Part shown: in pieces, positions 7,146 to 64,000 of the stretch
Layout: each line of letters opens with the position of its first letter
Numbering within the stretch: position 1 is the stretch's first letter
NCBI GenBank assembly: GCA_963402885.1
Contig: OY727093.1
Coordinates: 20,025,409 to 20,089,408 of the forward strand
Direction: 5' to 3'
Length of the DNA: 64,000 bases
Source: Antedon bifida
Taxonomy: Eukaryota; Echinodermata; Crinoidea; Comatulida; Antedonidae
Notes under the pieces: model-generated
The model's database searches: none
What the model was told of the DNA's origin: nothing
What the model saw: the letters and a program-made list of their open reading frames with translations, nothing else
Position numbers and translations under genes: made by a program

Positions 7146-7361
7146 TACGGTATTTTTTATTGGCAGCAGAAAAGGGTACAAAAAATATGGTATAAATTTG
7201 TAAATAGCGTATTTTATCCACAAAGTTTGTGGGGAAAATACGGTATACAAAATACGGTATTTTTTTTATGAGCGCTGCCAAAAAATACGGTATAAATTCA
7301 GTATTAAAAAAATACCATATTAAATACGGTATTTTCTTGGCAGCAGAAACAGGGCCTTAGT
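7146..7361. mobile_element. Small non-autonomous element built on TACGGTA palindromes
   Basis: At least seven copies of a palindromic word related to AAATACGGTATTTT occur in 215 bp. TTGGCAGCAGAAA occurs at about 7158 and 7337. The right end, GCAGCAGAAACAGGGCC, resembles the right end of the element at 42778-43208 (GCAGCAGAAACAGACCC), although that element's internal word is different. The left end is not clear. Non-coding. Confidence 0.5.
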
Positions 7362-7369
7362 GTATAAAT

Positions 7370-7651
7370 TATACACTTGATTTATAATAAAATCTAGAGA
7401 AAAAGTAAGTTTATTATTATGTAACAAGGGTGGTTTATGACATATACATGGAGGGTTGATCGAATTGTTTTATTCAACAAGAGTATATATGGCTCAATGT
7501 GCAGTGATACTGGCTATTGTATTTGCATTACCAAGATCCTATCTTTCATATATTATAAAATAAAGATTATCAATATATCTTTTAAAAATTAATCTTTATA
7601 TAAATCAATGCATATAACTTATAATTCGTCATAGTGACGAATTACATCTAG
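7370..7651 (+). mobile_element. Helentron-like 3' end, family B'
   Basis: The sequence ends with ATAATTCGTCATAGTGACGA, a hairpin, followed by ATTACATCTAG (CTAG at 7648-7651) and then host TT. The preceding AAATCAATGCATATAAC block is shared with the ends at 10081 and 47402. The left limit is uncertain; similarity to 47.4-48.0 kb suggests internal deletion. Confidence 0.55.
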
Positions 7652-7943
7652 TTAATATTGATACTGTACAATTTCCTTCAATTGTGGGATAAGTAATAAG
7701 AGATAAGTTTTGCCGGTGTTTGCGTAAGACCGTAAGTTTAATTGGGGTGCGTAAAGACGTGTGTCAAATGCATAAGGGTTTACAGGTCTGGACAGATCTG
7801 AGATATTCCAATGGGGTCTGTCTGAGACATTACTACTGTACTATTCAATTTCCTAATACATTTGAAAATTCTAATTTTATGTTGTAATTTTCTTTAAAAT
7901 TGCTTAGTGCAACAAATAAATATTTTTTCTCTTGTTGAATTAG

Positions 7944-8072
7944 ATCGATGCCAATTACACGCCAGACATTATGGAGACTCGTACACTGTATGGCATACAA
8001 ATGCAACAGTGTCGTAATGATGCGGTTATTGACAGGAACATGTTTACTAACATTGTAACAACCAAGAGTAAT
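7944..8072 (+). CDS. ATIC: ATIC exon (fifth from last)
   Basis: This exon encodes 43 residues, from [20 protein letters not shown] to [12 protein letters not shown]. The acceptor is GTTGAATTAG and the donor GTGAGT; phase 0 at both ends. It joins directly to LPESAICDL of the next exon, as in known ATIC proteins. Confidence 0.93.
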
Positions 8073-24275: not shown

Positions 24276-24288
24276 CCCTTTGAAAAAA

Positions 24289-24482
24289 AGCCGTATACGA
24301 TCCGTATACGCTGAAAACGTATACGACGTATACGGATCGTATACGATTTCACTGTTTACATTATTTCCACTCTGTTGCTCCACAAAGAGTTGGCGTCGTA
24401 TACGTTTAGCATACGTAACGTATACGTTGTTTATTGATGATAAGAATATCGTATACGGGACGTATACGAATCATATACGAAC
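24289..24482. repeat. Left TATACG palindrome array
   Basis: GTATACG occurs nine times, singly or in pairs separated by 2-4 bp (ATC, GAC, AC, GGAC). It may represent subterminal transposase-binding sites (inference). Confidence 0.75.
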
Positions 24483-27264
24483 AAACTAGGCCATTTTATA
24501 AATTATAATAGTAAGTAGTAATGAGTAAAATAGAGCTAAATAAAACATTTAGATTGTCATTACAACAAATACGTACGTAGGCTGCCTCTCTGGCCTAGCT
24601 AGCACCAGCCACTAGTCTAGTAGTAGTATTAGTAGTATAGGAGCTAGGACATAATTAGACCATATTTATTTCTATTTATTAGATAGCCTAGGCTACCGAT
24701 AGAATTCAAACAACGTTTTTCGCAAGTCAATAAAATACGCTAAACAGGTATACTACTATTAGGTAGGCCTAGAAAGGACAAGACAAGGGGCCATTTTCAC
24801 GATGTTGTTTGCAGTTTTCCTTTATAAAATATGACAGAGGTCAGTAAGTTCAGCCGCCGACGACGACCGAGCGTCGCTCGGTTGCCTACAGTTGCAACTC
24901 GTGGTCGACTCGGCTCTCTGGTGGCCAATCATGCATATCATCGGGTACGTCGTTCAATCTTCTCAATTCGTCACACCACGTGCGAGCTTTGGGTGGTCAA
25001 ATTACATCGTTTATGTTAAGCGATATTATTCCGCGACATGTGTTGTAGTATAGCATGGAGATGGAGTAACAATAATTTGGCAAATAATGCCGAAGAGGAA
25101 AACCATGATCCAAAACAGAAGTGGGATGTGTTGATATGTACATTAATATTATATAATAATAATTATTTAACGATGAATACAATCGGATTTTGAATATGAA
25201 GTTGAATTAAAAAAAATTAAAAACAAAATTAGTGGTTATAGTAAATACAATTATATCGAATTTCAATTTTTTCCCGGTTAAGCGAATTGAATTGCTTTCA
25301 TTTATCTCAGCGGTATTTCTGCTTGGTGATTAAAAAATCATAAAACATGTCTTTAAAAAATAACCACCCTCAACTGTAAATAACAAATTAAATAAGTCTA
25401 CTAAACATTGTTGATTTCCCATGGACCCAACAATACCCCCAAGATTTCATTCATAATTGTTTATTTGTAACAGTTTATTTTAAATCCTTGTCCTTTGTTA
25501 ATTCAATTGTGTGACAATTAAATTAGATTGTACATGCTGATGCTGTATATTATGTAAAAAGATGAGTCATGTTTATCAGATTCTTGAAAAAAATCAAAAC
25601 TTTGAATTCTCTCATTTAGAGTTAGACTCGTACTACATTAATTAAAATGATAAACAAATATCCAGCAGCCGTGTGTACAGAGGGGGCACAACAAAACTAT
25701 TAGCTACTAATATTGTACACAATTTATTACATCCTTTTTTAAGTAACACATATTCAATATTATAGTAAAACGTCTATACGTTAATACGTAGTTACGAGGC
25801 GGTATCCTCGCAACTAGGCCTCATAGTTGTTTACCACTCCAACACATATGATATGAATAAAGCCTATCTTATTAAATAGTATCTCGCGCCCGCGCATATG
25901 CAACAAAAAGTTACAAAGGTTCACTTATTTATATTAACGATTTTTTTTTTTAATTTACGAATTAAATAAATAAAAATATAATTAAATACCGCTTGGCCTG
26001 TCAATGATGGAGGCATAAAAATGGGGGCGTGGGGTACCTTTTTACCAGGGAGATGTAAAATAAGTATTTAACATTTACCTGGTTTTACTACGTTTGCGTA
26101 TAATTTATCATTTGGATTTTTTAAGTTACATGTAGGATATGTTAAATTGTATTTATCAGTGACAACTCTAGGAAATTTACAGCAATTAGTTCTGATGCCT
26201 AAATTAGTAAAATGCTAGCGTCAGAGCTTCTTTTTTTTGTATTTTTGGCTATTGAATGTTTTGTTGGCACCCCCTAACTCTGCAACGATGATATCCATAA
26301 TGCGTCATATTTAATTTCTACTAGCTAGAGTAGGTTATTATAATAATACAACCAATATAACCAAATCTAATATATGGGGGAAAGCTAGCTAGCTTATTTT
26401 CACAATGAGTGTACCACAGACTCTTTTCCTTGGCGTATTTTTCCCAGGCCTAGTTACTCTTAGTTTACTAGAGCTGCTACAGTAGCTAGTTACTGCATGT
26501 TCGATCTATACAATTACAATATGCCTATAGCCTAGCTAGCTAGAAGTCATCGAATTTACTATCTACTTTGGCCTACTGTAACTAGGCCTACATCCCATTT
26601 TTTTATTTTTTATGGCGAGTTAAAACCCGTAGCAAAAAAAATTCCGTTTGATAACAACAATGATGATTGAAAATGAATGAAATCTGATCCATCCATGTGA
26701 TGCATGCAATGCAGCACACACACCAGGCACGTTTTGGGCGAATTTATTTGGATCATTCCATATATATAATAGGGAGCCACATGTATTCTACATTTTTATT
26801 ACATCGTAATTTATGGATTTTACTTAGTCGTTTTAAATTTAATATACTGCGGGTCCAATTTAATATTTATTTATTTATTTCCAAGTACATTAATATTAAT
26901 TAAAGCACTTTCAAATTAATAACAGCACATTTTGTATGATTCACTTATTAATGGAACGTACCAAAGGTAAAGAAATAGCAGAGGGGATAAACAAGACGGA
27001 ACAGCCTGGGTGGGTTTTTATGCTTGATAGAAAAATAACGTCTTGTAAAATACAGCACCAATTTTTTTCATTAGCGAAAACTATGAACTAAATCATCATA
27101 GGGAATTTAATGTACATATACCGACTAAAAAAAACAAACAAATTGTACACTAATTATTGAAGTCAAGATGCTCCTGCCATCGTAAACCATGCGTAAACGT
27201 ATGCTATCGTCGTCTTGTAAAAAGAGGGACAGTCCCTTTTCGCTTGGTAATATGATGCAGTTTG
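24483..27264. other. Interior of the TATACG transposon, no gene seen
   Basis: AT-rich DNA with no long ORF. A GC-rich island at 24840-25020 (CGCCGACGACGACCGAGCG, an inverted CCAAT in GGCCAATCA) could be a relic promoter. TAGGCCTA-type words are frequent at 24590-24780 and 26330-26600. Confidence 0.5.
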
Positions 27265-27472
27265 TATACACGCGTACTCGTATCGTATACGGATCGTATA
27301 CGGATCGTATAATTAGGAAATTGTTTATAAATGATCGTATACGGTTCGTATATGTTTATTATGCGGGCAGGAACTTCCGAATTGACGTATACGTTTCGTA
27401 TACGAAATGGACTTCCTATACGAAACATATACGAAACGTATGTAAATCGTATACGTTCGTATACGGCTTTTT
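27265..27472. repeat. Right TATACG palindrome array
   Basis: At least seven GTATACG words plus degenerate CGTATATG and CATATACG forms mirror the left array, though the order and spacing are not exact inverted copies. Confidence 0.75.
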
Positions 27473-27483
27473 TGCAAAGGGTT

Positions 27484-35400: not shown

Positions 35401-38400
35401 TCTGTCCTATCTTTTAACACTAGCAGGTCTGAACAGTATACTAAAAAAGTGGTCCAGAATTGGGACCATGGTCCCAAATGGTCCCAAATTTAATGGAATG
35501 GTCCTTGACCACATATCTATCCGTATTTTGGTAAAGATCTTGTAATTACTTTTTGAGTAATCCTGCTAACAAACAAACAAACAAACAAACACACGCTACC
35601 AATTACATATACCTCCTTGGCGGAGGTAAATAAATAAACACATTGAAAGTAGTGATCAAATACCATGTATAACAGGTGAAAACACAATTTAAGTCACTTT
35701 TTTTGAGAAATTTAGGTTCTATAAATCGAATACCCTTTCTATTGTTTTTATGAACCACGAACAATATTAACGGATCACTAATTACAATTTTGTCCCAATT
35801 CACCATATTTTTTAGCTCGATTCAGTAGCCTTACACTGTATGTAGTATGTATACAGTATTATATTCTATATACTATAAGGCACAAAATATACTTAGAATA
35901 TAGAATTTAGCACCAACAACATATTATTATCAGGTCATAAGTGCTGTAATTTTTTTCTGTTTGCATTTTCTAGTGTACGTGCACGTGGCGTTGTGTCAAA
36001 GTGACAAGTTCAAATCTAGTTTTTAATTTTAAATTAATAATAACTTAAAAATAAAATACAACTTTAAAATGTAAACTTTCATGCGTTTGTAATGAATACA
36101 TACATATGTTTTATGCACTTGGACCTGACGATCAGAGGGTTTTAAAAACAAGACATTCTGATTTTTTCGTCTTGACTTTTAATGCAACAGATTACTGTAC
36201 GCCTTAAATAACTTTACGCTGTGAGTTTGAACATACCCTTAGTCTAACAAACATTTGGTTTAAGATACTAACCAGAAATACAATTACTAATATTTGAAAA
36301 CAAAGCAACATACATATCCACAACAACTTTAACATTTAATAAATGTAATAGGAATTTGCAGTTTAGAAAAAGATGGGTTCTTATAAATATGCACGATAAT
36401 ATGCAATTGTACTTACAGCTGTAGGTAATTTACTGCCATTACACCAGACATCCATTGTGTCTTTTTCTGTATTTAAGCATAAAATAGATCAATACATTAT
36501 TATTATTTGATTTCATAACTACAAAATATTATTCAATAAATACAGTATCTTATTATTAAGATTTTGAAATTTATTTTATTTATTAATTTTTATTTCATAA
36601 TCTCATTCAACAGCGGGAAACCCGCCCCTTACAGAATGGAATAATATATATATATATCTTAAGGCCTATACAATACAAAGTTATACAATCTTACTAATTT
36701 TATTACAAAAACAATTATAACGGTCAAAAAAGAGATCAATAGAATTATCTTTAACAACACAATTATTATAAAGAAGACAAATACGTGAGATAAATACATT
36801 CTTGGTAACATTGACACGACAATAGGGCACATACAGAAGAATTTAGAATTACGAGTACGACAACCAACAGCTTTAACATGAAAGGAAAACAAGGAGATAA
36901 AATTACAATTGAAACAGGAATTCATACATTTATACAAAAACTGAAGATCGAAAATGGAACGACGAGAGACAAGAGAAGGGAGAGAAAGGAGGGCAGTGAC
37001 AAGTAGAATACACAAAACGATCTTGGACTCTTTGAAGACGGGTACTATGAGCAGACGAAAACGAATTAGACACAACACTACAGTATTTAAGATGGAGACG
37101 GACAAGTGAAACATATAAATGAATTAAAGTATTAGAATCATGCCCAACATTCTATTTGCTTTACTAACAGCAGCATCAACTTGAGGAATGTAAAAACAAT
37201 GCATTACTATAGAGAATCGCTGTACAAACTAAACGCGCAGAGCGTGCATGGAGCGCACAGCCAGTGCCGTTCCGAAATTGCTATAATTGCTTTAATAATT
37301 TTTTTTATTATTTTAACAAAAACCTTCAAACAAATTGATTGTTTTGATATTAAATTCGCCTTTAAAAGCCTTTTGAACGTTATACATTTTCAAAACAAAA
37401 ACTCAACTCCATACTCTACATAGGAATAGTTGGACACAAACATGGCTTCTAATCCATTCAAAGTCATAACTCTTTATATATATGGCTCTGGATAGGGGTA
37501 TTATATAGCGCCACCACACACACATATGTTGTTGTTCTATGCGAACATGGCGGAATGCAATCGCATCTAATAAAGTACATGTTTACCACAGTTACTAAGC
37601 GCAAGTGTCATTAATACCCCGTTATTACACCGGTCAGTAGTCATAATCACATCATTAAAAAGAGGACTCATTGGTCATTTTTCCATTGCACAAAGGCCTG
37701 GTTGTATTAATAATTTATTTATACTTATTAAACAAGGAATATATTGATATTGCGTTTATTTTGTGTAGGCTCATCGCAAAAAATACCACCTAGGACAACA
37801 AATATTGTAATGTATTATAGATCAAACATTCTGTTAAAATGAAACATTTTGTGAATAGATAATTCACTCAATCATCATCAATATTATTTAATAAATAAAT
37901 CGTAACAAATATGTTCGTTTCTGGATTATGTGTTTATTCAAAATAATTATTGAAATGTTTTATCAGTACTACTTGACATCTATAATATACAGTAATATCT
38001 TGTATGGTAAATTAACAATCCGTTTAATAGATATGAATTAGGATTGTACATAGAGAAGTACTCAAGTTCACTCAATATTATTTAATAAATAAATCTAAAT
38101 AACACTATAAATATCAATATTTTTAGATGTTTTTTTTTTTCTTTTCTGGACTATTATAATGTTTTACCAGTACTACTTGACATTCTATAATATCTTGTGT
38201 GGTAAATTTAATAGCAATGCATTAAACTTGAAGGACTTTCCAAAATAATCTGTTTAACAGTTAATAGAATAACACTGTATGACCAAGAATGACATTTGGC
38301 GAAAATTATTGGTGTGGGATTATACTCGGATTGCATTAACTATTAAACACAGTTGAAATATTTTGAAATTTATATTATTATATTCGTAGACTACAGTACG

Positions 38401-41400
38401 TAACATGTAAACCTCAACACACAGTCTTCAAAATAAATATTGCATTTAACCTAAAAATGTTATATACACACAGCCTCGGACAACGGCGCCGTAGGAAAAA
38501 ATGCCGACCAGCAATCAGCAAAAATCTGGTAACATCATCCCTACATGATGGGACTGGCGCACATACACACGTATACACAGGCTATCGAGTCAATCTAGCG
38601 CTAGGAGCGCTGTATTATGTGACAGTATTTCAAATATAAAATAATTAATATTGTTAATAATAATAAACTGTTGCTGTACGTAGTGAACTCAAGGGTGAAC
38701 TTTATAGAATTTGTGAATAATTATTAAATTACTGTAATAATAATAATGATGTTTATCAAAATATTCTGTGTTTTATAACATAATTTTCCACCATGGTTCT
38801 TGAATGTTGATGATAAAACAGTAGGTGAAAGGCAGCTGGGCCTAAACATTGTTTACACCATCTGATCTATGGCAGCAGCAGTAACAATCGACGTTTAACC
38901 CTAACGCGCATCTAACGACTAGACAATTATGGTGGCGGTTGACTGTACAATACCCTTGAATATTCAAATGAATAATTTAATTAGCTCCTTTACGATCGTT
39001 ACACGGGACAAATGATCAAGCTATCATCGGTGACCGTTTGACGCAGTTTGTACGTTTGAAAACATTTGGACATGACGCCTTATCAACATTAGTGTACAAA
39101 ATATAAAATGTTTTATTCGGCGGTTTCGGTGGAAATACGTACAATTATGTGACCAATTTACCAGATTTAATATCTAGATACTGGAAAACACCATTAAACA
39201 ATAGAAATTATCTTTGGTAAAAGAATTACTCGTAATAAAAAACTCACCAAACACTATTCTTGTATCAATTCCATCTAATGTAAGAGTCCAACATTTGGCT
39301 GTTTTTGATCTTTGTTCAGTGAATTTTTTTAAGCTTTTCCCATCAACTTCTAATGAATACTCATATGCAAATCCACTAGTTGCCTCTATTGTAACAGTAG
39401 CCTTGTGCTTTCCAATGTAAAAAACTTCCCGTCCAACCAATTTAAACATCCAGTTCTTTCGAAAGATTTCCTGTCAGGAACATTGTGTAATCAGATACAT
39501 TTACATTAATGTTTTGAATTCAAATATTGAGCTGCAAAACACACCAGCACTATTAGACATGAATTTTTGTACACAAAAGCTTTATAAAATGAATAATGAA
39601 ATATGAATCATTTATTTATCTTTAAATCAAATTTATAGCAATGGTTGTGTTTTAATACAAACGTCAGGGGGGGGGGGGGGGGGGTTCAAACATGAAGATG
39701 ACAATTTCAGAAGAAATAATTTGAGCAAAATGATATTTGAAGCATGGTGCGCTCTCTTTTGAATTAAATAAAAATTACTTTTTAAATTCAGTTGGCCATA
39801 TGATTATGTCAAAACATCTGGTACTATTATTAGGCATAATTTCTACATTTCAGCAGCTTTGTTATCAACATCAAGGTCATCTTTAATTAAGAAGAGCATG
39901 ATATTCAAATATACAGTATTGGTGAAATTTACGTGACCCACATTATTCAAATTTTTAGATGTGATGATGTCATCAAATGAAAATGGTGTTAAATCTGTGA
40001 GAAAGATGATTGTTTGAGAAAGAACATACAAATTTAAAGGCCAGGTGCAGGCAAAAAATTTCTATTGATCATACATTCAAATAATTATCGATCTATAGTT
40101 TCCCCTATGTTTCATAATTTTTGGGATTTTATTTGTGTTACACGAGCTTGTTGAAAATAAGCACTTTCTTATCATTGGGGGGATAGTTCAAATTACACAG
40201 TAAAATCTCTATTCTTTTGTACACAAATTTTGTAAATAGAGAGGCATTTTAAAAAGCTATGAAAAATAAACGGTGTGGTAAAAAATGTTATCAGATGACT
40301 AATTATAGGTAATATAACTTGAATTTTACATTTCTGGTATTTTTTATTCAATTTCAGATTTTTATTTTCATGGTATAGCAACAATTATCTACCGTATATC
40401 CACCATTTTTTTTTCACCTTCTAGGGAGTCAACAGACATGTTATTACATTAGGTTAAACTACCTAACTACTGAAAAAAGGTCTGCCTGGCTTTTATGGCA
40501 GAATTTTGCCAAATTTTGTATTTGACCATATTAAGAGAAATTCATGTTTTTTGTCTTGATTTCTGTTACAAATATTTGATTTATGTACAATTAACCAGAT
40601 ATTATATTTAAAATTCATGCCTGTACCTGAGCTTTAAGAGAAAATCTGGCACAGATAAGTAAGATGCGCTCTGTTGATTGAATCCTATTTTTTTCAAATT
40701 CAGGTGGCCAAATCATACCATTTTGTATGTCTAATATGTACATGATACGGGTGCAGGTCAACTCGGCCCTAAATTGTCTCAACCAAAGTCAAGTCGGCCC
40801 CACGTCAAGTCGGCCCAAAGTCAACTCAGCCCCAAGTCAAGTCGGTCTCAAGTCAACTCGGCCCCATTAAAGTATGGAATGCAAAAAGTGCTAATAGTTA
40901 ATATTATAATGGCAGGATTAGTAAGGTTATGCCTACACATAGGCCTAGACAAAATAAAACAGCAAATTCAATATAAATTTTTTTTCCGTTTAATTGATAG
41001 ATAGGCCTAGTATTTATTTATATTATATTAATATTATTATTAGGGCCGAGTTAACCGATTAGTTTTTGGCCGAGTTGACTTGAGGCCGAGATGACGTTTA
41101 CTTCCTTGAAAGTGATTACACAATATTTTCCAAAAACTCATTTCTAAAAAAATCGGTCAGAAAATAGTGTTTTTAAGTTTTTTAATACATTACACTTTTT
41201 CAGTAACTTAGAGGTTATTAGGCGAAACGCGTTACACTTGGCAAGAATGCATTACACTTGGCAAGAACGTGTTACACTTGGCAATGGACGTGTTTTGTTC
41301 GTCGGTGAACGCATTTATATCATTTCTCCCTTATGGTCAATTATAGTGTCGAAAAATGGCGAATCAATTTTATACACGCAATTAATGCAATGCAATGTAT

Positions 41401-44400
41401 ATGCATTGTATATGCATTATTTTTACAAAACGTCAACAATTGTAGGGAATGGGTCTTTAATGTAAAATGCAACCAACCATCAATAAAAGATGATTGAATC
41501 ATCGTGGTGATGTCTCAAAAGTTAGGAGAAAAAACAAATGTCTAAAACAAAAATATGATTAGAAAATATGTATTACAAACAATGTTAATGTGTAGAAGGA
41601 ATGATTATTTGAAAGAGTAGTAGAGAAATGAATGAATTAACAAAAAAATAGGTTGAAAAATTAATTTTAGTTCTATTGTATAGCACTATAAAATATTTAT
41701 TATATATTATTACGTGCAATGTATTTCAATATTTTAAAAGATGATGAAATAAAAGTGGGACAAACTCACATAAAACAAAAAAAAACAGTTGAAATGTATG
41801 AAAAATAGGAATATTCTGGGTGGAGCTCCACTTTAAAATAAAAAAAAAATACGCAGGTGATACAACTGTATTTGAAAAATGAACAATCAGTGTACAGTAC
41901 ACCCTATTTAATTACTTGACTAATTTAGTAAGGCTTAAAACTTACGATGTATGTGGTTAGGATCAGGTAGATTTCAAAATGAAACCTTTTGATTTAGAAT
42001 GGCCTCCATTTAATCAACCAATAAAAGTATTGTGAGTGTTTTTCTCATATTACAATACAATTTTAAACCGAAAGTTATTCAGCTGAACAAAATTCTTAAA
42101 GACCCCTTCCCTGCAATTTTGGACGTTTTTTGGAAAATAATACATATATATCACTTTAAAAACATTAAACCATGTCATTCCTTGTCTTAAATGTACGTTT
42201 TATGGTAAATTATGATAAAAAGTGAGAAACAATGCACTACCTAAGTAGCTCGCGGCGATCGATCTCTCGTGGACGGTCTTAGGCCTAGCCTAGCTAGGCT
42301 TAGTTTTGTAGGCCTAGTTGGTAAACATCGGTAACGTACGAACATCGTACGCTAGCTATATACCTAGCCTGACGTTGTATAGTTGCTGCATTAATTGTCT
42401 TTCTATTTTTGCCAGACTCCGTTGATACAAATTGGGGAAAACCCGGTATTTTCGCTGAAAAGTTAGGAGTCTTCCACTTGTTTTGGCCTCACGATCGATC
42501 GAAAAGTGGGCGAATTACAGGTAAAAAACAAAAATATCAATCCGCGCGCAATGCATTTTGGGATTTATAGCGGGCCGCTATAATTATTAGAATCGACTTA
42601 TTTTTCATATTTTTAACCGTTTAAAGACGAAAAAAGTTATCGCAATATGACCATATAGTATTATTTTTACATTAAATATAGTTTGTGATCTTAAATTAGA
42701 TCTAAAAAATGTAGGGAAGGGGGCTTTAATGTCTGGAGAACAAGGCAGTTGAGTCTGTGGGGAAAATCAAAACATTTGGGTCCTGTTTCAGCATAAAAAT
42801 AACCGGTTAAAAACGGTGTGAATAAATTAACTCCAATTTCTTGGGAACAGAAACAGGACAATTTTGTGGTAACCGGCTAAAATGCAGCGCAAAATAAACG
42901 GTTAAAAACACCCATTCAATTCAGTGTTAGAACGCCATTTAATCAGTTATTGCTGGGCAACTTTAGCTGCAACAGAAAATAACGGTTATTTGATTGACAG
43001 TTGCTGACCTCGAGTCAACTACACAGCAGTAACGAATTAACCACCAGGACTAATTTCATTTTGGGTAATTCTAATGATTTTTTTCAACAACCACCCACTG
43101 ATTTAAATGGTTATTTTGGAGAAAAAATTGAGCAAAAATGCAGTCAATATAAAAATTAAATTTTTGAAATAATCGGTTTATTCGGCGCTATGCAGCAGAA
43201 ACAGACCCTTGGATTCTCTCAATTTTATTTACTTGGCCTCTGTCCTTCATGTCTCTACTCATGTTATTAATAAAATTGAGAAAATGTATGCTTTTTTGTG
43301 AAAGGGCAGTAATGGCTTTGTTAAAAGAAAAGTAATTATTAGGGATCTCAAAGGAGGAGGCCTAAAAATGATTGACATAAAATCCATGAACTAAACTAAA
43401 TAGTACTAAATAGTATCTGTATTATTACCTCCGCCAAGGAGATTATGTTTTCACCCCTGTATGTTTGTGTGTGAGTGTGTTTGTTTGTGTGTTTGTGTGT
43501 GTTTGTGTGTGTCTGTGAACAGCCTGGAGGCCACAGTTTTCATCCGATTCTCACCAAATTTGGCCACAATGATATATTCCCCAAAAGCTTGGACGAGTTC
43601 GATTGCGAGGGGAAAAGGTCATAGGTCAAGGTCACAACTAACAAAAAACTATTTTACTGCCTAGAGACCATAGTTTTTATCCGATTCTCACCAAACTTAG
43701 CCACAATGATCAATGACTCATCATATAATTGTGTTTAAATTTTGAAGGGTCAGGGTCAAAGATCAAGGTCCACAAAAAAAATATTCAATACTCTGGTTTA
43801 TAAAAGAAATGATTGTAAAAAGTATAGGTTTTAAAAACTATTTATCAAATATTAATTGAAAGAATTAAAGAACCCTTTACATCTCAAATAGCGAAGACAA
43901 TGAGACATCTTTTTTTATTTGATTGTGATGAGGTAAAACCTGTATGGTTAGGTTTTTTTTTAAAGAAATTACTTGAACTTCATCATAAGGCAGAAAAAAA
44001 TATTGCCATGAAAAGAAATTACCATGTTCAAATTGTTAATGAAATGGAGTGGAATTATAGAACACCTCTACTAGTATTGTAATGTAGATAGATTAATAAT
44101 TCTAGGTATACACATTAAAAATTCTGTTTTACTGTTAACTTTATGGATAATTATTATTAAGAAAATGATACTGTATTTAATAGTAGAAGTGGAAATTAAG
44201 TAAACTATTATTGCCAGGGAAAGAAATACCATGTTTAAAGACACCTTCCCTACAATCTGTGACGTTTTGTAAAAATAATACATATATATTACTTTAAAAA
44301 CATTAAACCAGGTCATTCCTTGTCTTAAATGTACGTTTTATGTTAAATTATGATAAAAAGTGAGAAACAATGCACTACCTAAGTAGCTCGCGGCGACTGA

Positions 44401-44827: not shown

Positions 44828-45235
44828 ATTTTTACCTACATTTAAGCGGCAATAAAATAATATATTAAGCAAACCAAATGAAACAACAATTCTCACATAC
44901 GCATCACAAGCAAGGTTATCAAAGTATCGTTATCGGTAGATCCGACAAGCGCACATAGTAGAGTAGGTTAGGTGGGTGCATAGGCATAGAAAGAACGTAT
45001 CATTTGTTAAATAAATACTCTATTACTAATTATAAACTATTTTAACTATTAATTTCTTTTCAGAAATAACATTTTTTACAATGATTTTCAAAGAGCACAC
45101 ATTCACAAACTTCTTGCAACCTGTAAAATAAACAAATATTGACCAGAACCAATAACCGCAAATACACTGGATGATTTTTATCGGAACCAAAATAAAACAT
45201 GATTGATTTTACCATATTGAACACAAGACTATATC

Positions 45236-45375
45236 GGGGGATACAGGTCAACTCGTACCCATGCCAACTCGTACCCACATTTTGTCTTACTCATACCCAA
45301 TATTTTGGCTCACTCGTACCCATCATGGACTGGTTTGTACCCATCATAGGCTGGCCCGTACCCATGTTTAATGCT
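45236..45375. mobile_element. Word-array end, ACTCGTACCC type
   Basis: GATACAGGTCAACTCGTACC starts a run of six or seven degenerate units (ACTCGTACCC, ACTCATACCC, TTTGTACCC, GCCCGTACCC) separated by AT-rich 8-14 bp spacers. No opposing array is nearby, so it is a single end. The family also occurs at 61137-61512. Confidence 0.5.
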
Positions 45376-45702: not shown

Positions 45703-46215
45703 TTAATTGCCTTAAACAAACGTGTATATGATCATTTCACTGAATTATTTACAAAATAAATGGAAAACGATCATACGTCATTGTTGCGTTGTTTATTTGA
45801 CAACTATAAATGCATGTTTTTTTTTTATAAAAGGGAAATCCTCAGTCAGCAAAAACACGTAGCTATTATAGAGGAAACATCTACAAAAATGTTTATCACC
45901 TAAACAAACTGTGTATCATCATTTTACTGAATTATTTAATAAAAAATATATGGAAAACGATCATGTCATTAATGCGTTTTTGACACACCCTATAAATGCG
46001 TAGGGAAATTCCGGTCAGCAAAAACACGTAGCTGTTATAGCTAAATTGCCTTAAACAAACGTGTATATGATCATTTCACTGAATTATTTAATCAAAAAAT
46101 ATATGTAAAACGATCATATGTCATTACTGCGTCGTCTATTTCAACACCCTATAAATGGATGTTTTTTTTTTTATAAAAGGAGAATTCCGGGTCAGCAAAA
46201 ACACGTAGCACGAAA
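45703..46215. repeat. Three-unit tandem repeat (about 145-190 bp)
   Basis: Units share CCTTAAACAAACGTGTATAT, GATCATTTCACTGAATTATT, AAAACGATCAT, CTATAAATG and GTCAGCAAAAACACGTAGC, starting near 45703, 45898 and 46044. The region continues to 46360 with CCTGCAGGTTTTTTGCTTAA and GGGAGTTGTTAATTC, and reappears inverted at 62170-62600. Confidence 0.65.
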
Positions 46216-46623
46216 TCTACGAGTAATTTGTACCACATAGCCCTCCTGCAGGTTTTTTGCTTAAAACAGGGAGTTGTTAATTCAAACAATCTTATATACC
46301 AGTAAAATGTACAATGTGTTTTTATTGAATCTAAATAGAAATATATATATTATAAAAATTGATAACTTGTATAAAAATGATACGTAATGGTACTTTACCT
46401 CTGCTTAATTGAATTGTAATATGTACTGTACATTACTATACTAAAACAGTAAAATGATTTTTCTAAATTAAATGTTCTCTACGTAATAAAAGACACAAAC
46501 GTACGTTCTCTATTATACAGATATTGCCTGCTTAGAGGTGGCCTGCTGGGTTGGGTGAAGCTAGGCTAGGCCTCCTATAGTATTTGTATTGTATGTATAA
46601 CAAGCCTGCCTAGTCACCTTACC

Positions 46624-46880: not shown

Positions 46881-46963
46881 TTAGGGAGGACTAATAACAA
46901 ATGAGGGCGCTATGTATGCATAGCTTAAATAGTTTAGAATATTAATTTCTTCAAGCAAGTTCC

Positions 46964-47036
46964 GTGGCGCAGCGGTTGAAGCGTTGTCTTGTGATGGAGT
47001 GACAATTTAATCGGGAGTTCAAGACCCACTAGATGA
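46964..47036 (+). repeat. tRNA-derived sequence (SINE head or tRNA pseudogene)
   Basis: TCCGTGGCGCAGCGGTTGAA has an A box (TGGCGCAGCGG), and GGGAGTTCAAGACCC has a B-box-like core at tRNA spacing. The anticodon stem is poor (TTGTC/GACAA with a 12 nt loop), so it is not a functional tRNA. Confidence 0.5.
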
Positions 47037-47401
47037 CTTGTTTATTTATCGGCAAATGCGAGTGTTGCCACACGAAAATTACACAGTCAATATCATCGTA
47101 CTCGAGAATTTATATGATTAATGACAGGGACACGATAATTACGCGAAAATTACTCAGTCAATATCATCGTTCTCGAGGATATATACGATTTACGATCCTC
47201 GCAGCGGTAGTCATGTGATGCAATTTCAACCAATCACGTTCACATATTTACATGTAATATAAAAATATATTATATTTAAATGAATGTTAACAAATAAATA
47301 TGGCTAATTAAACAATGTTTACAATCAATGGTCATTTTTATTGGCACACATTTCTCTGAAACCTGTAAAATAAAAATAAAAACAATTTAAATATATTATA
47401 A

Positions 47402-51993: not shown

Positions 51994-52018
51994 CCAATTT
52001 ACATTTAGCAGATCTAGT

Positions 52019-55000
52019 TAGTTATCCGCTTAGTAGCGGATAACTCCTTGTGATTGTAGTGGATCATTATTTTTTTTCTGTATTATTAGTTATCCGCATT
52101 CAGCGGATAACTCCTTGTAACTGTCCTGTTTCATCATCTTTTTTTTTTTTTTTTTCTGTATTCTTCTTTCTTTCTGTCATTTTTGTGTCACACGTAACTC
52201 AAAAACGTGTAAACATAACATTTTATAACTTTGTCAACATGTGGGCATTCACGTGAAGTTGTGCACCTGCTATTGTGAATGACGTCAGAGTTGCGCAACG
52301 TGACTTACGCGCGTTTTTATGAATTTCGCGTATTTAACATAGATCGAAAACCATATAACATTTTAATTTGAAACTTAGAAAAAGTTTAAGTTATATCTTG
52401 CGCTAACTGACTGTGGGAAAAAAATGACATGTTTCACACAAAGTTACGCGTGCACGCGCGTTTGAAATTTCAAAATGCGAAAAATCAATTTCTAATCAAC
52501 TTTCTACGTGTTTCATGTCATTTTGAGCATGTAAAAAATTCCCACGCGCGCGCATTTTTTTACGCGCGCGGTGCGCACGTAGCGTTGAAAACAATTTTTT
52601 TCTCGTGATTTATGTTTTTCCAGCCTTTTCTAGTAATTTTACCAGCTTTTGAACAATTTCGATATAAAATTACGTCATACGGGCACGTCAAATTGGATAA
52701 TTTACGTGCATTTTTTATTAAAAAGTTCAAAAAATCGTCAAAATTTGTCAAAATTATGCCCTTTTTTAAACAGTCGTAGTTCCTAAACTAAACGGTGAAA
52801 GTTATTTTTTTTGCATATTCTGGAAGTTGATGAGTTTTAGATTTTGGATCATGCGTTAATATGGCTAACCGGACATTGTGACGTCACCGTATGGCCACGC
52901 GAATATAAAATATAGGATTTTTGTATCTTTCATCATAGCGCATGACATTTAATAGACCGCATCTCCAATTATCTGTTTTCCATTTTTACCTAAATTTGTA
53001 TATTATCTAGGTCAATCAACTATCTTTCGCATGAGTTAAAAATATTTTAATTTTTATGACGTCATCATGTCTAAAAATGTAAATAATGTGGGTCACTTAT
53101 TTTCATCTTTACAGTAAATTTCAATCTGTTATAGCTCGTCAGAATAAAACGTGATAATCATGATTAAAACGTTTTCTGGAAGCTATTGGATTGTAGATAC
53201 GAATTCATGTGAACATTTTGCCAATCGGATGTTGTGACGTCATCATATGGCCAGTTGAATAAAAAAAATCGTATTTTCATATTTTGCGTAATAGTTCATC
53301 ACATTTAAAAGGGCGCGCATCTATATTTTACGTATTCAAATTTCTTCTACACGGTAATATGTGGTTGCTGAGATAATGTCCTTCCGAAATTGCTGTCTTA
53401 GTTTTTCATTTTGATACCGTCACCATGTTAAAAATAGGAATAACCGGGGGTCCCGTAATTTCACCTATTCTACACTGTATGTAATATGTATACAGATTAT
53501 ACTGTTTATACTGTATATACTATATGACACAAAATTGACAGAATTCAGCACTAACAACATATCATATTCTTCAGATCAGGTCATAATGCCATAATCTTTT
53601 TCTGTGTGCAAAAGTCTAACGTATGACGTGCACGTGGCGTTTGTCGTGCGGATAACTAACTCGTCAAAGTGACGAGTTACATGTCTAGTTCTTATTTCTT
53701 TCCCGTTTTTTTGTGGCTCACGTATCTCTAAAATGTGTAAACATAATATTTCATAACTTTGACAACATGTGGGCATTTACGTGAAGTTGTGCACCTCCTA
53801 TTTTGAATGACGTCAGAGTTGCGCAACGTGACTTACGCGCGATTTTATGATTTTTTATGATTGATCATAGCTTAAAAACCAAGAGTAATTTTTTTTTTAC
53901 CCTTTATGAAAATTTAAGTCATATCAAGGGCAAACTTTTAGTTAACTAAAAATGGCGTGTTTTACAAGAAGTTACGCGCGCACGCGCATTTAAAATTTTA
54001 AAATGCGCAAAATTAATTTCTAATCAACTTTTTACGCCGTTCATGACATTTTGCGCATGTCAAAATTTCCCGCGCGCGCGAACAATTTTACGCGTGCAGT
54101 GCGCACGCAACATGAAAATCATGTTTTTTTCTATTAAATTGTGATTTTCCAGCCTTTCCTAGTCATTTTTAAAAAGATTGACATCATTTCAAATTAAAAT
54201 GACGTCATACGTACACGTTGATTTAGACCATTTGCATGCGTTTTAGTTGCAAAAGTTACAAAATATTGTCAAAATTATGCCTATTTTGAATCTATTATAG
54301 CTCCTCAGGATCAACCGTTACCCCCGAGTTTTTTAACTTAATATGTAAGCAGATATGTTGTAGATATGAATTCATGCAGAATTTTTTCCTTACGGATGTT
54401 GTGACGTCATCGTATGGCCACACAAATGTAAAAAATAGGATTTTTGTCTCTTTCGTTATTGCTCATCACATTCAATGGAGCGCATCACGCTTATCCGTCT
54501 TCCATTTTCTCCGAGATTTTAATATTATCTAGGTCAATCAATTTTCTTTCGCATGAGTTAAAAATATTTTAATTTTTATAACGTCATCATGCCTAAAAAT
54601 TTAAATTACGTGGGTCATTAATTTTATCTTTACAGTAAATTTTAATCTGTTATAGCTCGTAAGAATAAAATGTGATAATCACGATTAAAACGTTTTCTGG
54701 AAGCTATTGGATTGTAGATACGAATTCATTTGAACATTTTGTCAATCAGATGTTGTGACGTCATCATATGACAAGTTTAATTAAAAAGGTCAAATTTTCA
54801 TATTTTGCGTAATAGTTCATCACATTTAAAAGGGTGCGCATCTATATTTTATGTATTCAAATTTCTTCTACACGTTAATATGTTGTTCCTGAGATAATTT
54901 CCTTCTGAAATTGCTATCCAAGTGTTTCATTTTGATACCGTCGCCATGTTAAAAATTGGAATAAATGGCGGGTCCCGTAATTTCACCTATTCTACACTGT

Positions 55001-57685: not shown

Positions 57686-57714
57686 TAATCGCAATTCTAA
57701 TATAGTTTAACCAT

Positions 57715-59018
57715 GTTACACTCCTGACATTTTGGGGTAGTTGATAGGCAATTATGAACCATTCATTCATTAAATTGATAACTGCATTCAATATCATATT
57801 TTTGAGTGCCACAACAACTACTGTCAACATTTAAGAAAGAAAAATGGCTTAACTTCCTACCTTATTTAATATTCTTAATATTTTTTCCAAATATTGCAAT
57901 TTGTCCTCGTTTTTTAAAAAGTGGTTTATTAATGTCATATCAAATATTTTAAGTAACGTATACAAGATAAATGTCATCATGATTGCTTTTTTTTAAGTTT
58001 ATACAATTTACTTTTTCAGAATATGCATCTGCCAGTTAAATTTGAGGAGTGGTTTTAGTGTACTAGATCATTGAAAATGCATATGCATTTTTTCATGTCC
58101 AAATAAAGTGTTACACTCCTGACCATTTCTGCATCATAATCGGGCATAATATTTTTTTGCAAACACATAAGAAGATAATCTTTTGACACAAAAATAGTAT
58201 TATGTTTGCACATATTTCAGAATAATTCTCTAATCTGGAAATGGCTTCAATTTAGTTATACTAGGCAAAAACTTTGTTGATATTTTGTTTAGCGTTACAC
58301 TCCTGACATACACCATTATGCCATCTGTAGCAGACATAATCCAAAATATGTTTTAACCTTTTTTATTTTTGGCTACTTAGTAGCACATACTACTATACTA
58401 AATTGGTATATTTAAATTAAATACAGCATACAAGTTTTACATTTTTGATGCAACGTCAATGTTACACTCCTGACATTTTAGGGTAGTTGATAGGCAATTA
58501 TGAACCATTCATTCATTAAATTGATAACTGCATTCAATATCATATTTTTGAGTGCCACAACAACTACTGTCAACATTCAAGAAAGAAAAATGGCTTAACT
58601 TCCTACCTTATTTAATATTTTTTATATTTTTTCCAAATATTGCAATTTGTCCTCGCTTTTTAAAAAGTGGTTTATTATTGTCATATCAAATATTTTAAGT
58701 AACGTATACAAGATAAATGTCATCATGATTGCTTTTTTTTAAATTTATACAATTTACTTTTTCAGAATATGCATCTGCCAGTTAAATTTGAGGAGTGGTT
58801 TTAGTGTACTAGATCATTGAAAATGCATATGCATTTTTTCATGTCCAAAAAAAGTGTTACACTCCTGACCATTTCTGCATCATAATCGGGCATAATATTT
58901 TTTTGCAAACACAAAAGAAGATAATCTTTTGACACAAAAATAGTATTATGTTTGCACATATTTCAGAATAATTCTCCAATCTGGAAATGGCTTCAATTTA
59001 GTTATACTAGGCAAAAAC
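57715..59018. repeat. 557 bp direct repeat inside the 3.67 kb element
   Basis: 57715-58270 and 58461-59018 are nearly identical, from GTTACACTCCTGACATTTTG to TAGTTATACTAGGCAAAAAC, separated by 190 bp. Differences are a handful of substitutions, so the duplication is recent. Confidence 0.85.
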
Positions 59019-59054
59019 TGAAAGGAGCCATTTTTTTCAAAACTGCCCATATGT

Positions 59055-59733: not shown

Positions 59734-59797
59734 GTTTGGAATTTCTTCTACGGCGATTTCATCGTTGCCAGGCTCTCATTGTTGTGTGTTATAATAT

Positions 59798-60511
59798 TCA
59801 CAGAGTTATACTGGATACATATACATTTCCTGAGATCCTTGCAATTAGGTTGGATGTAAGGTTGTGGAAGTCATTCTTTAAGTTTGTGATATTAAAATCA
59901 TCGCTACAGCAATCATTGGTTCCAACGTGCAGTATGATATTCTCTATATCCGACATATCGTCTTCTGACACTAATTTAAACAGTTGGGATGTAGTGGCTC
60001 CTCGATGTGTTTTGATAGAAGTGTTTAATAGTCCCCTTGTTTTGACATGCTTGACCATAGAGTCACCAATTATCAGATTTCTTCGCTTTGAGGAAAGTTC
60101 AGGTTCATCTTTAGGTTGGCAAACATATGTCACATTTAAATTGACATCTTCGGCATCATCATTTAAAGCATCATATTGGTTGGCAGTGGGCAGAGGTGTA
60201 TAGGAACGAACATTATCATTCACATCAGATGATTTGCACAGACTTGATTTGGCAGATTCACTTGGAATTTTGTTGGCTTCGACAGGCTTGGTGCAATTAA
60301 TTTGGTTTTCACTTGGTGATTTATCATTTAGTTTGAGCAGAAGGAAGCTTACAGTAAGTTCAAGAGTGTTAATCCTACTTTTGAGTTCTTTAAGTTCTTC
60401 TGATTTTGTTTCAACCATTTGCATAGGTGTTCCTCTAGGTTGATTTGTGATACTAGGAGTAGATGACATTATTTCATGATCCATGAATCCATAAAAACTT
60501 GACTCATCCAT
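59798..60511 (-). pseudogene. LINE ORF1 with SGNH esterase domain, truncated
   Basis: The 237-codon frame has a short coiled region (residues about 34-62, EELKELKSRINTLELTVSFL) and an SGNH/GDSL esterase-like domain from about 143: RRNLIIGDSMVKHVKTRGLL with the catalytic Ser in GDS, then ILHVGTND (block III). It stops after NVYVSSITL, before the expected C-terminal Asp-x-x-His block, so the triad is incomplete. Esterase ORF1 proteins are known in CR1-group LINEs. A frame upstream of the Met is open too (MDTVFEGLDLANL in a neighbouring frame), so the true start is uncertain. Confidence 0.8.
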
Positions 60512-60600
60512 AACCGAATTAAAGACGCTTGGTAGACTTAGGTCGGCAACACTACTGTAGGTAGGCTCAAATTGGCCAGGTCTAGGCCTTCAAAAACAGT

Positions 60601-61136
60601 ATCCATGATGAACTGAATGCTGGTGTGGTCGTGATGACTCAGTTTGTGAAACAAAAGACAGGGCCTAGCTTATCTAGCCCTATTGAATAGAACAAAGAAG
60701 CTTTCCAAGAGGTGCTAAGACTTGTTTATCTCTTCAAGTTGGTTTCTAAGTTTGACTTCACCTTAGCCTAGGATTAGACTAAAAATTTTACCTTAAAAGT
60801 CCAAAAAATGGTTGGATCAGTATCCTTGTATAATCAGCAAACAGATAATATTAGATTTAATGATGAATTCCAGCACTTTAGGTGATATATAATTTATGAT
60901 TACTGTGCCATTTAAGAGACTTCCATTCCATTCAGAGATATACAATATACACTGTAGCTAGGCCCTAGGCCTACTCTTAGTACTAGGCCTTACCTTAAAA
61001 AGCCCAGGCCTAGCCAACGAGGTGTCGATATGTACAATCTGTGTGGTGAGGCAATAATGTTCGGTGTATAAGACACACCCTTAATTTAGAGGTCAAATTT
61101 GCGTGTCAAAAGTGCGACTTATACACCGAAATATAC
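60601..61136. other. Spacer upstream of the LINE
   Basis: May include the LINE 5' UTR. TAGGCCTA-type words are frequent at 60955-61015. No other gene is seen. Confidence 0.35.
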
Positions 61137-61512
61137 GGTAAGCCAAATAATGGGTACGAGTAAGCCAAATACTTGGGTACGAGTAAGCCAAATAATTAGG
61201 TATGAGTTTGCATGGGTACGGGTTGGTTTGGATACGAGTAAGCCAAAGTGGGTACGAGTTGACCAATTATTTGGGTACGTGTTGGTTTGGGTACAAGTTG
61301 CCTAGCGCTAAGACGATCAGGCCCAGCAAATAAGACGATCGGGACCACATTTTCTGGGCCCGATCGTCTGAAAACCCATCTGTAGTAGGCTGGACGGGTG
61401 CTGGTCAACCCGTACCCAAACCAACCCGTACCCATGCCAACTTGTACCTAATTATTTGGCTTACTTGTACCCAAGTATTTGGCTTACTCGTACCCATTAT
61501 TTGGCTTACTCA
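61137..61512. mobile_element. Word-array element, ACTCGTACCC type, with a nested GACGATC-word core
   Basis: The left array (61140-61300) has about eight GGGTACGAGTAAGCCAAA-type units. The right array (61392-61510) has inverted units CCCGTACCCAAACCAA and TTGGCTTACTCGTACCC, bounded inside by GACGGGTGCTGGTCAACCCG. The core 61303-61375 is another small inverted repeat with AAGACGATCAGGCCC / GGGCCCGATCGTCT. No ORF. Confidence 0.65.
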
Positions 61513-61559
61513 TACAATTGGCTTAATTACTTACCGATTTTGCTGTGTGAATAATAATG

Positions 61560-62035
61560 CATGATAATGCATTAACCTATTGATTCTGTCAGAATCTTTA
61601 TTTATTTATTTATGTGGTTATGTTTTCAAGGTGCGCAATCAAAAATTACTCAGTCCACGCGCGACTTAACGAAATCACATTTGTAATCGTATCTTCACAA
61701 GCATGAATCACAATTGAACAAAATTTGGTACTCATAAATTTCAGGTCATATTTCATCATGACAATACAATTACGTGCGTAGCGCATATAACGCATGTGTA
61801 CGCGCGCTTAACATTTTCAAAATTGTCAAAATTTATTTTCGATGAAATTTAGAGTACGCTTCAGGCAATTTTAAGTGTTTAAAAAATTGCCATGAGTGCG
61901 CAGATTTTTGCCCGATTTCTGTTTTACAACCTTTCTTATTGTCATTTGTAAACATAAAAAACATTTACATTGAAATGAATTTGAACGGTTTCGGCTAACA
62001 GCAAATAAATAGAACTTAAACTACGTGGTGGAACT
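61560..62035. other. Decayed Helentron-like interior, otherwise empty
   Basis: CpG phrases such as TACGTGCGTAGCGCATATAA, CGCATGTGTACGCGCGCTTA and AAATTGCCATGAGTGCGC resemble interiors of the Helentron-like families. No termini or exons. Confidence 0.35.
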
Positions 62036-62037
62036 AT

Positions 62038-62155
62038 CCCCCGCCGGACACCATCCCAGTATTTCTAAAACTGGTTTCGGGGTTGGTAAAAAACTAAACC
62101 CCGCCGGACACCATTCTGGAATTTCTAGGTTTCGGGGTTGGTAAAAAACTACATA
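62038..62155. repeat. 60 bp tandem duplication
   Basis: Two units run from CCCCGCCGGACACCAT to TTTCGGGGTTGGTAAAAAAC, at 62039 and 62099, differing by a few bases. Confidence 0.75.
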
Positions 62156-62159
62156 TACA

Positions 62160-62600
62160 AAATTACATATATTTGATCAAGTAAATATTATTTCTATTTA
62201 GATTCAATAAAAACATTATGTACATTTTATTGGTATATAAGATTGTTTGAATTAAGAACTCCCTGTTTTAAGCAAAAAGCCTGCAGGACGGCTATGATAT
62301 CGAATTACTCGTAGATTTCGTGCTATGTGTTTTTGCTGACCGGAATTCCCCTTTTATAAAAAAAACATGCATTTATTTGGTGTCAAATAGATGACGTAGT
62401 AATGACGTAGGCCTATGATTGTTTTCCATATATTTTTTTATTAAATAATTCAGTGAAATGATCATATGTACATTTTATTGGTATATTATAAGATTGTTTG
62501 AAAATTAAGAACTCCCTGTTTTAAGCAAAAAGGTGGCAGGAGGGCTATGGGGTCGAATTACTCGTAGATTGCGTGCTACGTTTTTTTTATTTTTTATTTT
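62160..62600. repeat. Inverted relative of the 45.7-46.4 kb repeat
   Basis: Contains, in inverse order, TATTTCTATTTAGATTCAAT, AGATTGTTTGAATTAAGAAC, TCCCTGTTTTAAGC, GAATTACTCGTAGATT, GTGTTTTTGCTGACCGGAAT and ATTCAGTGAAATGATCATAT. The GATTGTTTGAA to GTAGATT block occurs twice (about 62240 and 62490). Confidence 0.6.
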
Positions 62601-62689
62601 ATTCAATCGAAACCAACAGCGATATTTACCGCCACTAACAGGTTTGATACAAACAAAGCCAGGACTGTTTAAAGAACCTTGATTGGTCC

Positions 62690-63556
62690 TGTCACGACAA
62701 ATAATTATGGTCCGGTGCCAAAATCGGTCCGGCCGGACCAGTTTTGGCTCTAAATAGTTGGCCAAAAGTAGTCCGCCACTGCCAAAATCGGTCCGGGTTT
62801 TTCTTTTGTCAATTTTATTAAAATTCTAGGCCTATGACTTGTTTTAAGTGGTTTTTGTCTAGAAAAAATATCCAATAGTGAGTATATCTCATTCAATAAA
62901 TGCACAAAATTAACAATTTTGCAAAAAACAAAGACCTTGTCCAACAACGGATTTCGTCCAAATTTCAGACTGTCCCACATTCACGTGAATGTGTATGGGA
63001 CGCCTATATTGCCTTTTACACCTGCTATTCTTAAACAGTGATATTATGAGCGCAATGAACAACGTTTATACGTTTGTTTAACAAGATAGAAGATATATTT
63101 AGTGTCAATTATGGAAATAAGAAAGGAAAATTGTTTTTTCCTGATTTTAAAACTATAGTAAATATACATACCTAGATGGAAAAAAAAACCAAAAAGGGTT
63201 AAAATATAAGGTTGCACAATTAATGAATCATAGGTCAGGGAGTTTTTGAAGTTTAGTTAAAATTACATACTAAACATGTGCCCAGAGGACACTTGCGTTT
63301 ATTAAAACCGTGTATGGATGTGCATACAGAACACGTACAGTGTTAATTTTTATCAATATAAACATTACCAGTAGAGTAAAATTGCGATCATATTGTGACT
63401 ATACTAAACTCTTTCTTATTTGCGACCAATTTGTCACACCATATTTAAGCAAGGTCGGGTCATATTTAGCGGCCAAAAGCAGTCCTGCCACCCGGACCAG
63501 TTTTATCCAGGCCGGACCCAATTTGGCAACCAAAATCGGTCCACAGGACCGATTTT
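62690..63556. mobile_element. Word-array element, AAATCGGTCC type
   Basis: The left array (62693-62800) contains GCCAAAATCGGTCCGGCC, GGACCAGTTTTGG and GCCAAAATCGGTCCGGG. The right array (63455-63556) has GGCCAAAAGCAGTCC, GGACCAGTTTTATCC, CCAAAATCGGTCC and AGGACCGATTTTCC. The 650 bp between has no recognisable ORF. Confidence 0.55.
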
Positions 63557-64000
63557 CCATTCCATTCCGTTCCATTATAGGCCTAGCCTAGTTTATAATT
63601 GATTTCTACTAGCCTTGACCTAGGCCTAGGCCTATATCATATGACGTTACAGTAGCCTACTACTACTAGCTAAACCGCTAGGTAGGCCTATAGGCTAGGC
63701 CCTAAGTAATTTCTAATGTTCGGCTAACCCAGGCCTAGAGAACGTAGGCCTGGCAGTGGTACTACTTTACAGTTACCTTCAAAACAAAGGGATCAAAGTT
63801 GTACTCTGTAGGCTGTCCAGGTCATTTGTGTGTGAATGAGTATTCGATTATATTCTTGGTTGTTGTGTTGGTCCCGTTTTGTGTTGTGTTGTCGTCGTTG
63901 CTATGACATTTTCTCGAATCCAGGACGATTCGGCCCGCATTGAGACGATTCGGTCCACTTTTGGGCCGAAGAAACGTATCACTCACACACTAGCCTAGGC
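63557..64000. other. TAGGCCTA-rich DNA and a GACGATTCGG word pair
   Basis: CTAGGCCTAGGCCTA and close variants recur at 63575-63750. CAGGACGATTCGGCCCGCAT and GAGACGATTCGGTCC at 63922-63956 look like the edge of another word-array element. No gene is seen. Confidence 0.4.

What the first reader, a model, noticed from the sequence alone, without database searches (positions are those of the whole stretch)
7146..63975. Many small elements share one architecture but each uses its own short word
At least eight groups end in, or are filled by, arrays of a 7-13 bp motif: TACGGTA (7146), TATACG (24289), TGGGACCA (35463), AAGTCGGCCC (40762), AACCGGTTA (42778), ACTCGTACCC (45236, 61140), GACGATTCGG (61303, 63922) and AAATCGGTCC (62693). 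Words are often palindromic or in opposing arrays, with AT-rich spacers. Inference: this may be one diversifying transposon class in which subterminal sites change in concert, for example by coevolution with transposase DNA-binding domains. I do not know a description of such word-switching.
Basis: partly seen in the sequence, partly recalled or inferred. Interest (0 to 1): 0.75.

Follow-up and report, generated by a model that had tools for sequence, protein, structure and literature searches.

The report
Animal transposons with family-specific binding-site arrays
This stretch of animal DNA holds several unrelated jumping elements whose ends carry clusters of a short repeated word, most likely landing sites for the proteins that move them, and related elements use different words; similar word differences are already known in plant transposons.

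Summary
The short-word clusters are real: in 11 of 14 regions the top 7-mer recurs more than dinucleotide shuffles allow (p<=0.007); E, H-right and I do not pass. They are not one class. Called ends fall into at least three types: A/E (GGYCCTGTTTC-like, fitting the PIF/Harbinger G(N)5GTT motif), D/F/G (CAGGTCAACTC-like) and B (CCCTTTG). Target duplications differ: 2 bp for B, where removing the element plus one TT restores a 524-residue LINE frame, and 3 bp for E. H and C stay unassigned. "Same ends, different word" holds for D versus F/G: 12 identical terminal bases in D and F, yet 8 of 8 D sites have a G core and 17 of 17 F/G sites a TACC core. It is weaker for A versus E. Best explanation: subterminal binding-site arrays for element-encoded DNA-binding proteins, grown by local tandem duplication and diverging by family. 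Such divergence is in print for VANDAL/VANC (PMC5735166) and CACTA elements (PMC2613891). None of 30 reading frames scanned is a transposase; no host genome or relatives were available, so coevolution is inferred, not shown.

The parts
7143..7356 (-). A: array of ATACGGTAT; right terminus (read on the minus strand) GGCCCTGTTTCTGCTGCC at 7356, flank TTA; by eye a second, decayed copy of the same end at about 7143-7178; no left end found
   Evidence: k8 p=0.0005
24276..27481 (.). B: 3206-bp element, TIR CCCTTTGMAAAAAAGCCGTATACGA, TSD TT, inserted in a LINE reverse-transcriptase ORF; no coding capacity found
   Evidence: (I23), (of removals of 0-9 bp tried, only 2 bp opens the LINE frame)
24292..24479 (.). 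B left subterminal CGTATACG array (9 exact, 10 with at most 1 mismatch)
27284..27465 (.). B right subterminal CGTATACG array (7 exact, 10 with at most 1 mismatch)
35449..35512 (.). C: short GTGGTC...GACCAC stretch with TGGGACCATGGTCCCA and GGTCCCAAA copies; not assigned
40754..41095 (.). D: starts CAGGTCAACTCGGCCC; GTCAASTCGGCCC array forward at left (6 sites) and reverse at right; mostly 16-bp register; right boundary uncertain, no TSD found; between two FAIM1-like exons
   Evidence: FAIM1
42779..43208 (.). E: 430-bp element, ends GGTCCTGTTTCAGCA / GGGTCTGTTTCTGCT, TSD TTG (TTGG if the left end is placed one base in), sparse TAACCGGTTA-like sites (array not significant)
45244..45363 (+). F: left end CAGGTCAACTCGTACCC and CGTACCC array (16- then 21-23-bp spacing); right end not found
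61135..61306 (-). G-left: CGTACCC array on the minus strand, end GCTAGGCAACTTGTACCC at 61306
   Evidence: (I4)
61309..61373 (.). Gc: about 60-bp mini-element with GACGATC words between the two G arrays; its left end matches I
61401..61515 (+). G-right: CTGGTCAACCCGTACCC end and CGTACCC array; a 102-bp stretch is 94% complementary to G-left
62709..63573 (.). H: CCAAAATCGGTCC words at two ends of a possible 865-bp element, candidate TSD ATTAT; left array supported, right not
63921..64000 (+). I: CAGGACGATTCGGCCC start, 2 exact GACGATTCGG, cut by the window end; array not significant at k=7

Best explanation
The region carries copies and remnants of several different, apparently non-autonomous DNA transposon families. 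In several of them the sequence just inside the ends holds clusters of a short word that most likely bind an element-encoded DNA-binding protein (a transposase domain, or a partner protein such as the Myb-like protein of PIF/Harbinger) made by full copies elsewhere in the genome. Clusters grow by local tandem duplication of an 11-, 16-, 20- or 23-bp unit, which would spread a mutated word through the array; hence related families (D versus F/G; less surely A versus E) keep their ends but differ in word. Shown: arrays, called ends, the TSDs of B and E, the D versus F/G difference. Inferred: protein binding, tandem duplication as the spreading step, coevolution, and the existence of autonomous partners.
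For: Array enrichment in 11 of 14 regions. B: at most one mismatch, 47.6 sites per kb in each 210-bp end against 0.4 per kb in the middle, matched TIRs, and a LINE frame restored by removing the element plus TT. E's two ends and A's end fit the published G(N)5GTT PIF/Harbinger motif. D and F are identical over 11 terminal bases, while 8 of 8 D sites and 17 of 17 F/G sites found by a pattern allowing either core keep their own core. TRF finds tandem units of 11, 16, 20 and 23 bp. Precedents, read as passages: the Harbinger3_DR Myb-like protein recognises a 9-bp subterminal motif (PMC9710019); Galileo TIR tandem repeats hold several THAP sites (PMC3688188); VANC (PMC5735166); CACTA (PMC2613891).
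Against: No transposase among the 30 reading frames scanned (some are shorter than 70 aa, and the window has 109 ORFs of 70 aa or more, so most were not scanned). No other copies of any element were available and ends were placed by hand. E, H-right and I arrays do not pass the chance test. No convincing TSD for D, C, Gc or G in the offsets tried; F, A and I lack a second end. The shared D/F end overlaps the word itself, so it is not an independent marker.
Confidence: 0.6

Rival explanations
1. Independent tandem-repeat expansions inside unrelated elements, with no protein-binding role; the words are whatever happened to be duplicated.
For: TRF detects true tandem units in several arrays; arrays E, H-right and I are weak; families differ in ends and TSDs.
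Against: B has the same palindromic word at both ends, 2.8 kb apart, and no exact copy between; D has the word on opposite strands at its two ends; spacing in B is irregular (9 to 59 bp).
Confidence: 0.2
2. The arrays are targets of an element-encoded anti-silencing or regulatory protein, as VANC is for VANDAL, rather than of the transposition machinery.
For: Closest described evolutionary behaviour: a short motif in tandem arrays in non-coding parts, different between related TEs (PMC5735166).
Against: In B the sites sit at the two ends, whereas VANC21 signal is reported in introns, intergenic and terminal non-coding regions. No VANC-like gene was seen; none was sought beyond Pfam.
Confidence: 0.15
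3. One diversifying transposon class in which all eight words descend from one another.
For: D, F and I begin CAGG (G-right CTGG), and D and I agree at 13 of 16 terminal bases (p=0.012 uncorrected); shared architecture.
Against: At least three end types without mutual similarity, and TSDs of 2 bp (B) and 3 bp (E).
Confidence: 0.05

Closest known systems
VANDAL (MULE) transposons and their VANC proteins, Arabidopsis (PMC5735166 passages; PMC10398659 abstract and outline)
   Same: Short motif arrays in non-coding parts, formed by tandem repeats, different between related elements, tied to an element-encoded DNA-binding protein
   Different: Plant elements with an identified and tested protein; here animal, no protein found, sites at the element ends
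CACTA/EnSpm subterminal repeats bound by TNPA-like proteins (PMC2613891 passages)
   Same: Conserved terminal repeats with subterminal repeat words that vary in size and sequence between elements; the authors raise coevolution
   Different: None of the 12 termini listed begins CACTA or CACTG
PIF/Harbinger and Tourist-like MITEs (PMC2213677, PMC2836001, PMC9710019 passages)
   Same: A and E ends fit G(N)5GTT; E has a 3-bp TSD; a Medicago PIF/Harbinger subfamily with subterminal tandem repeats in opposite orientation is described
   Different: E's TSD is TTG, not TTA/TAA; no transposase or Myb-like gene found
PHIS group at large, such as ISL2EU and Spy (PMC10045372 passages)
   Same: B's 2-bp TSD lies in the 0-4 bp range given for the group
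   Different: No transposase and no terminal motif tested; a lead only
Foldback-like elements, Galileo and Tetris (PMC3688188, PMC4079207 passages; sea urchin TU elements recalled)
   Same: Inverted arms built of tandem repeats that can carry transposase sites
   Different: G's arms are about 100 bp and run the wrong way round for one element; no TSD longer than 4 bp found at the outer edges, against 8-10 bp in Tetris

Membership tests
PIF/Harbinger (A, E) | TIR with G(N)5GTT | tested here: met
   E left, E right and A right all match (motif from PMC2213677 passages)
PIF/Harbinger (A, E) | 3-bp TSD, TTA or TAA | tested here: inconclusive
   E: TTG on both sides, or TTGG if the left end is placed one base in; A: right flank TTA, no left end
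PIF/Harbinger (A, E) | DDE transposase plus Myb-like protein in an autonomous partner | not testable with these tools
   no host genome held; none among the 30 reading frames scanned
PIF/Harbinger (B) | TIR with G(N)5GTT and 3-bp TSD | tested here: not met
   ends CCCTTTG, TSD TT
CACTA/EnSpm | ends beginning CACTA or CACTG | tested here: not met
   none of the 12 termini listed
Tc1/mariner (B) | TA target duplication (PMC10045372 passages) | tested here: not met
   TT
VANDAL/VANC | element-encoded VANC protein binding the array | not testable with these tools
   no coding copy available
Foldback (G) | long inverted arms of tandem repeats bounded by a TSD | tested here: inconclusive
   102-bp arms 94% complementary; only a 4-bp candidate ATAC at the outer edges

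The most novel reading that the evidence does not exclude
D, F/G and I belong to one animal transposon lineage whose binding word has two halves that change separately: D shares its left half (GTCAAC) with F's end and its right half (TCGGCCC) with I, as if a two-part DNA-binding domain swapped one half of its specificity at a time. The right-half difference runs through the D and F/G arrays; the left half is less regular (GTCAAC exactly at 1 of 6 F sites; GACGAT at 2 of 3 I sites). The probability was lowered from 0.15 to 0.12 on recounting this.
Probability: 0.12. Interest if true: 0.6.

Novelty: new member of a known kind. Interest (0 to 1): 0.33.

Why it matters
Transposons whose ends stay the same while their protein-binding word changes would be a natural record of how DNA-binding specificity evolves. 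The principle is documented in plants; an animal case with related families side by side, if confirmed with coding copies, would allow the protein side and the DNA side to be compared directly.

Tried and rejected
Outside relatives: exact two- or three-word patterns gave 4, 0, 4, 0 and 0 stretches in viral contigs. I read the matched stretch of all 8: short repeats, several coding-looking, with no element ends that I could see; judged unrelated by eye. One prokaryote-genome scan gave 24 stretches, 4 of them with two matches each; I saw titles only and did not examine the sequences. Word strings in the paper library gave 15 papers, listing only; I took them for primers and opened none.

Simple microsatellites: rejected as a sole explanation (see rivals). 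A single foldback element at G: not accepted, because its arrays point outwards. Helitron-type central arrays: not tested. Coding capacity of B: no Pfam family passes its cut-off among 10 of its reading frames (best E=0.027 for Fibrillin_U_N, below its cut-off). tRNA and Rfam scans of the window: nothing.

Literature on word change: searches. One search (six terms) found one paper, on bacterial REP sequences, listing only; (six terms including coevol) found none; the VANDAL and CACTA papers came.

Full report
What the window is. It is animal-type DNA: a LINE reverse transcriptase domain and two exon-like matches to FAIM1 on the minus strand (E=6.7e-28 in 39177-39473; E=1.3e-11 in 44669-44929). 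GC is 32.3%. No genome is held for it, so the comparisons below are within the window.

Observation. Word clusters exceed chance. Order-2 Markov simulations of the window (10 per k) gave one cluster in one run at k=6 and none at k=7 or 8, against 22, 27 and 40 observed (many observed entries are overlapping words of one array). Region by region, the commonest 7-mer beats 2000 dinucleotide shuffles at p<=0.007 in 11 of 14 regions; E (0.05), H-right (0.62) and I (0.18) do not. Of 60 random windows 0 reached 0.005 and 2 reached 0.05, one of them overlapping H-left. I chose the regions after seeing them. The listed AACCGGTTA at 42778 is a single exact site, not an array.

Element B is the best-defined. 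Its ends CCCTTTGAAAAAAAGCCGTATACGA and CCCTTTGCAAAAAAGCCGTATACGA enclose 3206 bp. The word CGTATACG has 9 exact copies in the left 210 bp, 7 in the right 210 bp and none between, one there with a mismatch. It lies in a LINE ORF: of removals of 0 to 9 bp tried, only 2 bp (TT) gives one open frame across the junction, 524 residues long. Ten of its reading frames hold no Pfam family above its cut-off. Its 2-bp TSD lies in the 0-4 bp range given for the PHIS group (PMC10045372 passages), but its superfamily is open.

A and E. E is 430 bp with ends GGTCCTGTTTCAGCA and GGGTCTGTTTCTGCT and TTG on both sides; A's only end is GGCCCTGTTTCTGCT with TTA outside. All three ends fit the PIF/Harbinger motif G(N)5GTT used in PMC2213677 (passages). 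A's end and E's right end share 13 identical bases. By the Repbase rule quoted in PMC4455052 (passages: same TSD length and at most 1 mismatch in bases 1-11) A's end agrees with E's left end at 1 mismatch, and differs from E's right end at 2; A's TSD is unknown. A has an ATACGGTAT array; E has sparse TAACCGGTTA-like sites that do not pass the chance test. Recalled, not from a call: TAACGG is a Myb-type recognition word.

D, F, G, I. D and F start with the same CAGGTCAACTC (0 mismatches in 11); G-right differs at 2, I at 3. In a pattern search allowing either core, 8 of 8 D sites had the G form (CGGCCC, CAGCCC, CGGTCT, CGGCCT) and 17 of 17 F/G sites the TACC form (F 6, G-left 6, G-right 5). Before this count I dropped three F matches that overlap other sites out of register (45339-, 45345+, 45360-), all three of the G form by pattern. 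The pattern missed one D site at 41067-41079 and two G-left sites at 61230 and 61273 that one search lists with mismatches; read by eye, the first is of the G form and the others of the TA form. Spacing starts at 16 bp in F and G-right and is 31, 16, 16, 16, 16 bp in D's left array; F and G also use 20-23 bp. D and I match at 13 of 16 terminal bases, p=0.012 uncorrected among 136 pairs, so only suggestive.

Clustering of ends. Of 136 pairs among 17 hand-placed 40-bp ends, 11 reach p<=0.001 against 2000 random 40-mers of the window: the two ends of B, D, H and Gc, the two G ends with each other, F with both G ends, F with both D ends, Gc left with I, and A with E right. D and G are linked directly only at p=0.012. 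Nothing links B, H or C to the others at p<=0.001. So there are several families, not one.

Mechanism. A word at both ends of an element, palindromic or on opposite strands, close to matched termini, is what binding sites of a transposition protein look like. In PIF/Harbinger the Myb-like partner recognises a 9-bp subterminal motif (PMC9710019 passages); in Galileo the tandem repeats of the long TIRs hold further THAP sites (PMC3688188 passages). TRF shows several arrays to contain true tandem units of 11, 16, 20 and 23 bp, a simple route by which a changed word could spread. The binding and the coevolution are inference.

Known or new. Hosaka et al. [quoted passage not shown] The finding is therefore an animal instance of a known kind, with at least three end types in one window.

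Noticed in passing
31139, minus strand (LINE ORF 30384-31310): A 2A-type ribosome-skipping motif (GDVESNPGP) behind a hydrophobic stretch near the start of an ORF upstream of a LINE reverse transcriptase; 2A motifs in LINEs are recalled as known.
   Followed up: partly
57713-58273 and 58459-59019: 561-bp direct repeat, 98.2% identical, 185 bp apart: a recent duplication or LTR-like pair.
   Followed up: no
39177-39473 and 44669-44929, minus strand: Two exon-like FAIM1 matches (profile 34-108 and 1-34); D, E and the 41226 array lie between them.
   Followed up: partly
42096-42496 and 44235-44639: Direct repeat at 92% identity beginning TTAAAGACMCCTTCCCT, with an inverted partner at 41409-41460: possibly a TTAA-type element.
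   Followed up: no
45705-46348 and 62185-62587: A repeat family in several copies near both F and G, inverted between the two places, up to 87% identical.
   Followed up: no
62032-62151 and 52018-52144: Two tandem repeats of 60 and 67 bp with hairpin-like units by eye.
   Followed up: no
46960-47040: Looks by eye like a tRNA-derived SINE head (A- and B-box-like words, recalled); ARAGORN and Rfam report nothing.
   Followed up: partly
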